Program-made: the position numbers and the translations under genes
Notes under the pieces: generated by a model
Seen by the model: the letters and a program-made list of their open reading frames with translations, nothing else
Told to the model about the DNA's origin: nothing
Databases searched by the model: none
Assembly: GCA_938010565.1 (NCBI GenBank)
Contig: CALLUQ010000188.1
Span: 1-33,596 of the forward strand
Source: an uncultured Flavobacteriales bacterium
GTDB taxonomy: Bacteria > Bacteroidota > Bacteroidia > Flavobacteriales_D > CALLUQ01
Length of the DNA stretch: 33,596 nucleotides
Reading direction: 5' to 3'
Part shown: positions 7,726 to 33,596 of the stretch, one piece after another
How positions within the stretch are numbered: position 1 is the stretch's first letter
Layout of the letters: each line of letters opens with the position of its first letter

Positions 7726-8748
7726 ATGTTGACCAAAATAGCCGTGTTAAAACAAGAAATAGAAGCCTTTTCGGCTTCCACCCGAGATGACGTAGAACAA
7801 TTTCGGGTCCGGTATCTTGGGCGAAAAGGGGTCCTCCCTGCTTTGTTTAAAGCCTTTCGCACGGTTCCGGTCCATGAGAAAAAGCAGTTTGGCCAGGAGT
7901 TGAATGCATTGAAAAACCTGTTGGAGGATAAGGTCAATAGGCTCAAAGAAGAACTGGCCGACTGTGGTGATTCTCCTGCCAAAGGCGTCGACATGACCCT
8001 CCCTCCCGAAATGCAGGCACTGGGATCACGTCATCCCATTTCCATTGTGCAAAACGAAATAACCGACATTTTTTGCAAAGCGGGTTTCAAAGTAGCGGAC
8101 GGACCGGAGATCGAAGACGATTGGCATCAGTTTTCAGCATTAAATTTTCCTCCGGAACACCCTGCCCGCGATATGCAGGATACCTTTTTTGTAGATAAAG
8201 GAGCACATGAAATGTTGCTTCGTGCACATACTTCAACGGTTCAGGTTCGGGTCATGGAAAGCCAATCTCCTCCCATTCGTTCGCTGATGCCTGGTCGGGT
8301 TTATCGGAACGAAACCGTATCGGCACGTGCCAATTGTTTCTTTCATCAGGTAGAAGGATTATACATTGATAAAGGCGTTTCTTTTGCCGATCTGAAACAA
8401 CTGCTCCTGTATTTTGCACGTGAAATGTTTGGCAAAAAAAGCGATATCCGCATGCGGCCGTCTTACTTCCCGTTTACGGAACCAAGTGCAGAGGTAGATG
8501 TGAGTTGCTACATTTGCAACCAAAAAGGATGCAATGTTTGTAAACACACCGGTTATCTCGAAATCATGGGTTGCGGCATGGTAGACCCCAATGTGCTGGA
8601 AAATTGTGGCATAGATCCGAAAGTGTATTCGGGATATGCCTTTGGAATGGGCGTAGACCGCATTGCGATGCTAAAGTATAATGTAAACGACCTTCGTGTG
8701 TTTTTCGACAACGATGTTCGTTTTCTGAAACAGTTTACATCGGCCTGA
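7726..8748 (+). CDS. pheS: Phenylalanine--tRNA ligase alpha subunit
   Basis: A 340-residue catalytic subunit of the heterotetrameric class II PheRS, which charges tRNA-Phe. An N-terminal coiled-coil domain (about 1-90) binds tRNA. The class II core follows: motif 2 region RSLMPGRVYRNETVSARA, then RMRPSYFPFTEPSAEVDV, and motif 3 GYAFGMGVDRIAML. A CYIC...CNVC cluster before motif 3 fits the zinc-like Cys4 insertion of many bacterial PheS proteins. pheT is not adjacent, so the beta subunit must be elsewhere. The stop is only 8 bases from the convergent pgk stop. Confidence 0.97.
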   Translation: MLTKIAVLKQEIEAFSASTRDDVEQFRVRYLGRKGVLPALFKAFRTVPVHEKKQFGQELNALKNLLEDKVNRLKEELADCGDSPAKGVDMTLPPEMQALGSRHPISIVQNEITDIFCKAGFKVADGPEIEDDWHQFSALNFPPEHPARDMQDTFFVDKGAHEMLLRAHTSTVQVRVMESQSPPIRSLMPGRVYRNETVSARANCFFHQVEGLYIDKGVSFADLKQLLLYFAREMFGKKSDIRMRPSYFPFTEPSAEVDVSCYICNQKGCNVCKHTGYLEIMGCGMVDPNVLENCGIDPKVYSGYAFGMGVDRIAMLKYNVNDLRVFFDNDVRFLKQFTSA

Positions 8749-31828: not shown

Positions 31829-31923
31829 GGGTGTGTTGTATTATTTTGTACACTTGTTTTAAGGTGGGGATTAGGGAGGTGGTAAATAGTTCGGGAACCG
31901 GCACCGTTCCGGATCATGCACCA

Positions 31924-31931
31924 TAACTTTA
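31924..31931 (+). promoter_or_regulatory. Weak -7 box upstream of the TssD-toxin gene
   Basis: TAACTTTA matches TAnnTTTG except for the last base and lies 31 bases before the ATG at 31963. No -33 element is evident. A small hairpin GGAAC-N7-GTTCC lies shortly upstream. Confidence 0.3.
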
Positions 31932-31941
31932 AACAAAAAAC

Positions 31942-32143
31942 CTGAAACCCACCGGTAAACCCATGCTAAAAGCCAAATTATTTGCTTGTGGAACAGAACG
32001 GGAATTGCTACGAACGGACCTGGAATACCACAGGGTATTCCATCCTAAAACAGGCCGGCCCGGCCCCATTCCGATGGGAGGGCTGGTTACCCTTGCTTTT
32101 GTCTCCGGACATGGCGATGACCGGTTATTGCGTTGGATCACCC
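31942..32143 (+). repeat. Left copy of a duplicated TssD 5' segment
   Basis: These 202 bases recur at 33395-33596 with about ten mismatches. The repeat starts 21 bases before the start codon (CTGAAACCCACCGG) and runs into the TssD coding region; its true end lies beyond the window because the right copy is cut. Most mismatches are silent. Confidence 0.9.
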
Positions 32144-32835
32144 ACAGCCCGGAAGGCGAACTTTGTACGTTAACCGCAGCTAAGATCGTATTTTACGAAG
32201 GGAACCAGGATGGGATCGCTCTTTTTGAATACAAATTGAACGATGCCGCTTTGGTGTGTTGGAAAGAAACGTTTCATTCGGCAGGGGATGAACCCATGAC
32301 CGTAACCATGACGATTTCTGCCGCCATACAGGAGGTGAAAGAAATAACCTGGGTAAAGCCTTGGCGGGAAAGTGGGGTGCTTTCGGAGGAAAGGGCTGCC
32401 CATAAAGAAGGAGGAACGGGAGCGACTTTGGGTGATCGTGGGAAGAAAGAGGATGATGGGAGTGTGTTGGAAGGTGCTTTGGAGGATGGGGATAAGGTGA
32501 AAAGGCAAAATGTAGAAGACTTTATATCTCCGCATGCTTATAGTCGTCATAAGTTCGACCCTTCAAGCGTTTCGTCAAGAAGTAGAACTCAATATGGACA
32601 GAAAATGGATGTAGCAGATATACGAGATCAAACGATGAATAATGCGGATGACATTGTTAAGCATTTTGATGATAATGGAGTTCATTATGCAACTACTTAT
32701 AAAAAGACATTCAATCAAAATATAAGTACTAATGCAACTCCAACCAAAGAGTCGAGAGTAATTATAAATCATTTAAATGAGAGTAGATCATCTCAATTTC
32801 CGTACTACAAAAAAGGGGTAACCGATGAACTCTAA
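31963..32835 (+). CDS. tssD: TssD (Hcp) tube protein with C-terminal candidate toxin domain
   Basis: A 290-residue fusion. Residues 1-130 match Bacteroidota type VI TssD/Hcp proteins: beta-rich, with RPGPIPMGGLVTLAFVS, DDRLLRWIT, KIVFYEGN and the late motif LVCWKETFHSAGDEPMTVTMTIS. Residues 136-185 are a charged linker. Residues about 187-285 (HAYSRHKFDP, RTQYGQKMDVADIRDQTMNN, YATTYKKTFNQNIST, SRVIINH, SSQFPYYKK) are a separate AT-rich domain in the position of a toxin. Its His, Lys, Tyr and Arg content suggests an RNase-like polymorphic toxin, but I cannot assign a family. The Hcp part would carry the cargo inside or on the tube. The next gene overlaps the stop by 11 bases. Confidence 0.85.
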   Translation: MLKAKLFACGTERELLRTDLEYHRVFHPKTGRPGPIPMGGLVTLAFVSGHGDDRLLRWITHSPEGELCTLTAAKIVFYEGNQDGIALFEYKLNDAALVCWKETFHSAGDEPMTVTMTISAAIQEVKEITWVKPWRESGVLSEERAAHKEGGTGATLGDRGKKEDDGSVLEGALEDGDKVKRQNVEDFISPHAYSRHKFDPSSVSSRSRTQYGQKMDVADIRDQTMNNADDIVKHFDDNGVHYATTYKKTFNQNISTNATPTKESRVIINHLNESRSSQFPYYKKGVTDEL

Positions 32836-33259
32836 AAAAAAGATAAAATTTGAATTGAAGGAGGTGTCATGTAACGAGACAGTTGAAATAGATGGGGTCT
32901 CATTTTCCAATATGGCTTATCTTTTAGTTTTTGTTGATGGGGTCAATTTATTTACCCTCGATTTATTTCAGGAAAGCTTTTTGGTTTTTAAAGAACTAAA
33001 AAATAGTATTTCAAAATCGGGGAAGTACTTGTTGTTTACCGGTGTTTCCGGAATAGCAGATGATGCAGGCTGGGAGTATGTTGAAGTATTTCATGAAGAA
33101 AATTCGGTTACCTGGAAGGTTCGAAGAGATGATACTTTACGATCCTATATTTTTGATCGGATTGACTATTTAAAAGAAATTTCGATTGTCGAGAAAAAAA
33201 TTGAGCTCCTAAATAGTAGCATGAAATTAGAACCTTTGTATGTGGTTTATCCTGAGTGA
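32825..33259 (+). CDS. Candidate immunity protein for the TssD-fused toxin
   Basis: A 144-residue soluble protein without signal peptide or membrane span, clearly more AT-rich than the genes to its left. Its middle (SGKYLLFTGVSGIADDAGWEY, then VTWKVRR) vaguely recalls small alpha/beta immunity-type proteins whose relatives carry a Cys-rich TCSCG segment there; the cysteines are absent here. The role is inferred from context: the ATG lies inside the end of the toxin gene (11-base overlap), it is of immunity-gene size, and a second TssD gene follows. It should bind and block the toxin domain in the cytoplasm. No family name assigned. Confidence 0.65.
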   Translation: MNSKKKIKFELKEVSCNETVEIDGVSFSNMAYLLVFVDGVNLFTLDLFQESFLVFKELKNSISKSGKYLLFTGVSGIADDAGWEYVEVFHEENSVTWKVRRDDTLRSYIFDRIDYLKEISIVEKKIELLNSSMKLEPLYVVYPE

Positions 33260-33394
33260 AGTGGAGTTATTACATTTACCGATACACCAAATTAAGCTCC
33301 AAACCTACACTTTGAATCCCCTTCACAAAGTGAAACGGAAAAATTACAGCAAAGATTTCACGATCAGGTTCGTTGAATTAAGTAATGTTTGCAT

Positions 33395-33596
33395 CTGAAA
33401 CCCACCGGAAAACCCATGCTAAAAGCCAAATTATTTGCTTGCGGAACCGAACGGGAATTGCTACAAACGGATCTGGAATACCACAGGGTATTCCATCCTA
33501 AAACAGGCCGGCCCGGCCCCATTCCGATGGGTGGGCTGACTACCCTTTCTTTTGTCTCCGGACATGGCGATGATCGGTTATTGCGTTGGATCACCC
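33395..33596 (+). repeat. Right copy of the duplicated TssD 5' segment (cut by window end)
   Basis: About 95% identical to 31942-32143 at an offset of exactly 1453 bases, including the 21-base flank before the ATG. The copy continues past the right edge. Confidence 0.9.
33416..33596 (+). CDS. tssD: Second TssD (Hcp) gene, 5' part only
   Basis: Starts MLKAKLFACGTERELLQTDL and runs open to the right edge, 60 codons. It differs from the first copy at three residues (R17Q, V42T, A45S) and otherwise by silent changes, so it is under protein-level constraint and not a decayed fragment so far. By analogy its C-terminus may carry a different toxin with its own immunity gene, which lies outside the window. 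The 157 bases before it contain a 7-bp hairpin CACTTTG/CAAAGTG (33308-33314, 33326-33332) but no clear consensus promoter. Confidence 0.85.
   Translation, partial: MLKAKLFACGTERELLQTDLEYHRVFHPKTGRPGPIPMGGLTTLSFVSGHGDDRLLRWIT

What the first reader, a model, noticed from the sequence alone, without database searches (positions are those of the whole stretch)
31942..33596. Tandem array of TssD (Hcp)-effector and immunity cassettes
A TssD tube protein with an extra C-terminal domain, an overlapping small AT-rich gene, and then a second near-identical TssD start form a repeating unit: tube carrier, variable toxin, immunity. In Hcp-fused type VI effectors, cargo is changed by swapping the 3' end behind a conserved Hcp module. 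The conserved 5' segment with a sharp drop in GC behind it is the signature of such swapping. No other type VI genes are in the window, so this would be an orphan effector island beside housekeeping pdh genes.
Basis: partly seen in the sequence, partly recalled or inferred. Interest (0 to 1): 0.85.

Follow-up and report, generated by a model that had tools for sequence, protein, structure and literature searches.

The report
Dispersed TssD-toxin and immunity gene units
This bacterium carries at least 17 scattered sites with copies of a needle-tube gene that is fused to a different likely poison nearly every time, usually followed by a likely antidote gene; the idea is known, but the number in one genome is unusual, and the injection machine that should fire them was not found in the incomplete genome.

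Summary
At 31963-32835 lies an intact gene for a TssD (Hcp) tube domain with a C-terminal extension. An AT-rich 144-aa gene overlaps its end by 11 bp. A second TssD start at 33416 (95% identical over 181 bp) runs off the contig end, so the array cannot be read further. Genome-wide the pattern is much stronger: about 21 TssD copies on 17 contigs, four contigs holding two or more. Twelve copies are about 75% identical over residues 1-140 and share a linker to about residue 178. Behind it the C-termini are unrelated and include Colicin D, Colicin E5, Tox-REase-3, Tox-REase-9 and Doc/Fic. Most units have a small gene next to them, some in known immunity families (Imm7, SUKH, Colicin_immun). The window's C-terminus is 45% identical to the end of a Priestia plasmid-encoded protein. 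These are 'evolved Hcp' polymorphic effectors of the Bacteroidota type VI (iii) kind. TssC, TssN, TssK and TssR were not detected in this 92%-complete draft, although six of seven TssD-bearing relatives have TssC. A T6SS-like VgrG-Rhs locus is present. Most likely the T6SS core is unassembled or unbinned; recent loss is possible. It is a known kind of effector in an unusually large, dispersed repertoire.

The parts
31893..31962 (+). Leader upstream of the TssD unit, alignable with the leaders of C59, C100, C189, C147 and C130 (GAAACCCACMGGTAAACCC-ATG)
   Evidence: Side-by-side leaders of 13 copies, judged by eye; ungapped match of the two window copies over about 20 bp
31963..32382 (+). TssD (Hcp) tube domain, residues 1-140
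   Evidence: PF17642 52.3 bits; profile of 13 paralogs matches solved Bacteroidales TssD 9qwl/7yw0 over the whole fold, E about 5e-6; 66-77% identity to 12 paralogs; dN/dS median 0.20 among 13 paralogs
32383..32499 (+). Semi-conserved charged linker (residues about 141-179) after which similarity between paralogs ends
   Evidence: Mean pairwise identity 0.73-0.84 over residues 1-140, 0.46-0.48 over alignment columns 141-180, about 0.15 beyond
32500..32832 (+). C-terminal domain (residues 180-290): putative toxin; no Pfam or NCBIfam family. Motifs shared with Bacillota proteins: H-A-Y-x-R-H, TQYG, NIST, R-V-I, S-QFP
   Evidence: 45% identity over 98 aa to the C-terminus of Priestia megaterium WP_098804299.1 and 37% to an Agathobacter rectalis plasmid protein; no library match
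32825..33259 (+). 144-aa AT-rich gene overlapping the toxin by 11 bp: predicted cognate immunity protein
   Evidence: Position and G+C 0.34; same layout at most other units, some with known immunity families; no homolog of its own found
33416..33596 (+). Start of a second TssD gene (60 residues, 95% identical), cut by the contig end

Best explanation
The gene is an 'evolved' TssD (Hcp) effector of the Bacteroidota type VI secretion kind (T6SSiii). Its N-terminal 140 residues would form, or co-assemble into, a hexameric ring of the tube. The linker would leave the C-terminal domain in or beside the tube lumen, and contraction of the sheath would carry it into a neighbouring bacterium, where it acts as a toxin. 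The overlapping gene encodes the immunity protein that protects the producer and its kin. The genome holds a large repertoire of such units made from one TssD module. The 3' end (toxin plus immunity gene) is exchanged behind the conserved module, and new units arise by tandem duplication and dispersal. Shown here: the module, the unrelated C-termini, known toxin and immunity families at several loci, tandem copies, remnants and purifying selection on the tube domain. Inferred: delivery, toxicity and immunity of the window pair, and exchange by recombination. The firing machine is most likely a T6SSiii cluster missing from the draft assembly.
For: 18 PF17642 matches on 17 contigs of the genome; the finer search gives about 21 copies including partial ones. 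Conserved head and unrelated tails. Recognised toxins behind the same head: Colicin D 1.4e-25 (C189), Tox-REase-3 2.2e-10 (C73), Fic 5.5e-5 / DOC 3e-9 (C125), Tox-REase-9 1.7e-29 (C104), Colicin E5 2.5e-7 (C201). Neighbouring small genes in known immunity families: SMI1/KNR4 SUKH-1 5.8e-14 (C201), Imm7 4.3e-19 (C73), Colicin_immun 1e-6 (C147); also DUF4304 2.1e-8 (C104). The window C-terminus recurs at the end of a Priestia protein followed by a small gene. dN/dS median 0.20, range 0.12-0.33, over 78 pairs of TssD domains. Profile match to solved Bacteroidales TssD. The nearest named TssDs (about 39-40% identity) are on Tenacibaculum finnmarkense plasmids, one beside tssN with tssO and tssR nearby, another a 569-aa TssD with a following small gene. 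VgrG (35% identical to a relative's T6SS VgrG over 326 aa) with Rhs on C137. Evolved Hcp with variable C-terminal toxins is described for Bacteroidales GA2 T6SS (PMC4714493).
Against: No TssC (PF17541, PF05943), TssN, TssK or TssR detected in the genome, and no plain structural TssD of the usual 130-175 aa frame was seen. The window toxin domain and its small gene match no known family, so their roles rest on position and analogy. The TssD is divergent (28% identical to a relative's canonical TssD). Several copies are broken or remnants (C126, C183, C196, C93, C201), so part of the repertoire is decaying. TssR was sought with a model that rang nowhere, so its absence has no positive control.
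Confidence: 0.78

Rival explanations
1. The T6SS was recently lost from this lineage. The units are relics, kept for a while mainly because their immunity genes still protect against related neighbours.
For: Four core components not detected in a 91.6% complete genome, while 6 of 7 other TssD-bearing genomes examined have TssC (the seventh is 71% complete and has TssN). Several units are frameshifted, truncated or reduced to remnants.
Against: Eleven full-length copies have intact reading frames, and the tube domain shows dN/dS of about 0.2 among paralogs, which argues for long-kept function, although it cannot exclude a recent loss. A VgrG-Rhs locus is still present. A single missing gene cluster is well within the missing 8%, and plasmid- or island-borne clusters are easily left out of a draft.
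Confidence: 0.15
2. The TssD-toxins are fired not by a T6SS but by the extracellular contractile injection system encoded on contig C165.
For: The genome encodes a contractile machine on C165: sheath-like protein, two tube-like proteins, LysM protein, spike (PF04717), PAAR-like protein, gp25-like protein, and no T6SS sheath was found.
Against: That cluster brings its own tube proteins. No TssD toxin lies on that contig. The nearest TssD relatives sit beside T6SSiii genes. eCIS gene names here come from reading the sequences, with only the spike matched to a family.
Confidence: 0.05
3. The C-terminal domain of the window copy is not a toxin, but the appended domain of a structural or regulatory tube variant.
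For: It has no Pfam or NCBIfam match and the single-sequence structure model is too poor to judge.
Against: It recurs at the C-terminus of an unrelated putative secreted Priestia protein followed by a small gene. Its sister units carry recognised nuclease and Doc toxins at the same position, and its G+C and overlap with the next gene match theirs.
Confidence: 0.07

Closest known systems
Evolved Hcp effectors of Bacteroidales GA2 T6SS (Coyne et al. 2016, PMC4714493)
   Same: Hcp/TssD head with variable C-terminal toxins (deaminase, RNase types) and nearby immunity genes; Bacteroidota subtype iii
   Different: Described as typically one larger evolved Hcp within a T6SS gene cluster; here about 21 copies dispersed on 17 contigs with no core cluster seen, and the TssD is divergent
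Specialised Hcp / Hcp-ET effectors of Enterobacteria (as discussed in PMC8262886)
   Same: Hcp domain fused to C-terminal toxin domains, including pyocin and colicin DNase types
   Different: Different Hcp family and phylum (subtype i)
T6SS orphan islands (PMC13098142)
   Same: Hcp genes with effector and immunity genes away from the main cluster, thought to widen the effector repertoire
   Different: Those are counted mostly in Pseudomonadota and often with vgrG or PAAR; here TssD-toxin units stand alone
TssD genes of Tenacibaculum finnmarkense plasmids CP116296 and CP116298
   Same: Nearest named TssD (about 39-40% identity over residues 1-148); one is a 569-aa TssD with a following small gene, the other lies beside tssN with tssO and tssR nearby
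   Different: Different C-terminal domain; one or two places per plasmid rather than an expanded set

Membership tests
TssD (Hcp) of Bacteroidota T6SSiii | Match to PF17642 over the whole domain above the curated cut-off | tested here: met
   52.3 bits against 25.8, profile 3-128 of 128
TssD (Hcp) of Bacteroidota T6SSiii | Sequence relationship to solved TssD structures | tested here: met
   Paralog profile matches 9qwl_A and 7yw0_A, E 4.5e-6 and 6.4e-6, positions 3-135
TssD (Hcp) of Bacteroidota T6SSiii | Hexameric ring and secretion by the T6SS | not testable with these tools
   Needs protein work
Evolved Hcp polymorphic effector | Hcp head with variable C-terminal toxin domains among paralogs | tested here: met
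   Unrelated tails, five recognised toxin families
Evolved Hcp polymorphic effector | Adjacent cognate immunity gene | tested here: met
   Small AT-rich gene next to most units; known immunity families at three loci and DUF4304 at a fourth. Not shown by family for the window gene itself
Evolved Hcp polymorphic effector | Toxicity and neutralisation | not testable with these tools
   Needs expression in a laboratory strain
Complete T6SSiii in this genome | Sheath, baseplate and membrane-complex genes (TssC, TssK, TssN, TssR) | tested here: inconclusive
   Not detected in G000; TssC and TssN models rang in relatives, TssK only in the genome its query came from; TssR model had no positive control; assembly 91.6% complete
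Complete T6SSiii in this genome | VgrG spike | tested here: met
   C137 VgrG, 35% identical to the T6SS VgrG of relative G014 over 326 aa, followed by a TPR-like gene and Rhs

The most novel reading that the evidence does not exclude
A bacterium without any T6SS core keeps a large, selected set of TssD-toxin fusions and delivers them by another contractile machine, such as the eCIS-like one encoded in the same genome. That would make the Hcp module an exchangeable cartridge between machines.
Probability: 0.06. Interest if true: 0.85.

Novelty: new member of a known kind. Interest (0 to 1): 0.5.

Why it matters
If the units work as proposed, one bacterium can load a single tube with about a dozen different fused toxins, and the set gives a clear natural experiment in how one delivery module is re-armed by 3'-end exchange. 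It also supplies candidate toxin-immunity pairs with no family yet, the window pair among them, whose toxin domain is shared with Gram-positive plasmid proteins.

Tried and rejected
Scan of 84,980 species genomes with the TssD alignment and with the window C-terminus: no relatives by these strict patterns. Viral contigs with either query: none; phage records with the C-terminus: none. A weak TssN hit next to the C126 TssD (E 0.013) looked like a hidden T6SS cluster but is an MFS-type transporter frame on reading the locus. The C165 spike gene first looked like T6SS but lies in an eCIS-like cluster. Structure prediction of the window C-terminus without an alignment gave pLDDT 57 and pTM 0.19 and was not used. 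My impression from the motifs that the window domain is an EndoU/BECR-like RNase was not supported by any library match. Prophage toxin Bxa (PMC11699363) was checked as a possible Hcp-type toxin outside T6SS, but Hcp appears there only as a test substrate.

Full report
Observation. The three features exist at the stated place. The gene at 31963-32835 has a TssD tube domain (PF17642, 52.3 bits) and a C-terminal extension of about 150 residues. The next gene, 32825-33259, overlaps it by 11 bp. A second TssD start at 33416 is 95.0% identical to the first over 181 bp (shuffled maximum 34%) and is cut by the contig end. G+C falls from 0.50-0.54 in the TssD and linker to 0.34 in the C-terminal domain and in the following gene. 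Upstream lie panC-, pdhA- and pdhC-type housekeeping genes.

Genome-wide pattern. The TssD model finds 18 matches on 17 contigs. A search with the window's own TssD domain in the fetched contigs, together with the reading of each locus, gives about 21 copies including partial ones. Nineteen belong to one close family on 15 contigs; C49 and C183 hold a second, more distant type. Two or more copies or remnants lie on C188 (window), C201, C125 and C93. Six contig ends fall inside a TssD gene (C188, C201, C125, C163, C104, C49), as expected if the assembler broke at the repeat. This means the array sizes are underestimates.

Head and tails. In 12 copies aligned over their length, mean pairwise identity is 0.73-0.84 over residues 1-140, 0.46-0.48 over alignment columns 141-180 and about 0.15 beyond. 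The tails that can be named are bacterial toxins: Colicin D (C189), Tox-REase-3 (C73), Fic/DOC (C125; Fic just above its cut-off, DOC just below), Tox-REase-9 (C104) and Colicin E5 (C201). The others, the window's included, have no family. Small AT-rich genes (about 31-39% G+C) follow most units at short distance. Three fall in known immunity families, SUKH-1 (C201), Imm7 (C73) and Colicin_immun (C147), and one in DUF4304 (C104). One exception: behind the Colicin E5 unit on C201 no clear forward small gene was seen, only an ORF on the other strand.

The window's own tail. Residues 183-280 are 45% identical to the C-terminus of a 229-aa Priestia megaterium plasmid protein, whose start looks like a signal peptide (my reading) and which is followed by an 81-aa gene. 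They are 37% identical to an Agathobacter rectalis plasmid protein. The downstream small genes of the three are not detectably related, so the immunity role of the window gene rests on position. No library names the domain.

Selection and decay. Among 13 TssD domains, dN/dS by a Nei-Gojobori count has a median of 0.196 (range 0.12-0.33, 78 pairs), so the tube domain has been kept under constraint while the copies diverged. Five loci show breakage: C126 and C183 are out of frame, C196 is truncated, and C93 and C201 hold remnants besides their intact copies (the C201 remnant is judged from the leader sequence).

The machine. In the genome, TssC (PF17541 and PF05943), TssR and TssK gave no match at E 0.001 (one stray TssC fragment at E 0.23), and TssN gave only sub-threshold hits; the one beside a TssD is not TssN on inspection. 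The same searches found TssC in 6 of 7 other TssD-bearing genomes, TssN in G014, G031 and G040, and TssK in G014 itself, from which the query came; TssR had no positive control. Two spike genes exist: one in an eCIS-like cluster on C165, the other a T6SS-like VgrG on C137 followed by a TPR-like gene and an Rhs gene. Because the assembly is 91.6% complete, one missing gene cluster is not surprising. I therefore treat 'orphan in the genome' as unproven.

How unusual. In 396 genomes of the class at least 90% complete, 29 have any TssD. Nearly all frames listed outside this genome are 101-187 aa; one in the list is 397 aa. In this genome most full copies have frames of 261-304 aa. The scan scored at most 10 candidates per genome, so counts for rich genomes are lower bounds. 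No other genome of the same family appeared among the relatives, so the locus could not be compared among close relatives.

Known kind. Evolved Hcp with variable toxin tails is described for Bacteroidales GA2 T6SS (PMC4714493) and for Enterobacteria (PMC8262886), short polymorphic toxins with Hcp1 heads are noted in PMC3482391, and hcp-effector-immunity orphan islands are a named category (PMC13098142). I did not find a report of a comparable dispersed TssD-toxin set in one Bacteroidota genome in seven paper searches, but many subscription papers are not held.

Verdict. The unit is a member of a known kind. What stands out is the size and dispersal of the repertoire and the unresolved whereabouts of its machine.

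Noticed in passing
G000 contig C165 (L029:1003-16611): eCIS-like contractile injection cluster: sheath-like protein, two small tube-like proteins, LysM protein, spike with PF04717, PAAR-like and gp25-like proteins and large baseplate-like proteins. Names other than the spike are from reading the sequences.
   Followed up: partly
G000 contig C137 (L030:1-4131): VgrG (cut at the contig start), a 435-aa TPR-like gene and an Rhs gene with DUF6531, cut at the contig end.
   Followed up: partly
L017 (C130) 8128-8313: 61-aa ORF behind the C130 unit containing GKGKAWHHIVEQ; looks like a displaced toxin tail left by an earlier exchange, but has no family match.
   Followed up: partly
L018:8203-8268, L019 and L022 (C43, C125, C201): A second type of leader (CGATATTC...CAATTGTCCATTATAT) precedes some TssD copies and a degraded one, differing from the GAAACCCACMGG leader of the window group.
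   Followed up: no
L024:5377-6785 (C183): A second, divergent TssD type with a frameshift between head and a peptidase-like tail; its relative on C49 runs off the contig and is 59% identical to a Tenacibaculum finnmarkense TssD.
   Followed up: partly
L065:2614-3578 (Priestia megaterium plasmid pC): Putative secreted protein ending in the window's toxin-like domain, followed by an 81-aa gene: a possible unrecognised Gram-positive toxin-immunity pair.
   Followed up: partly
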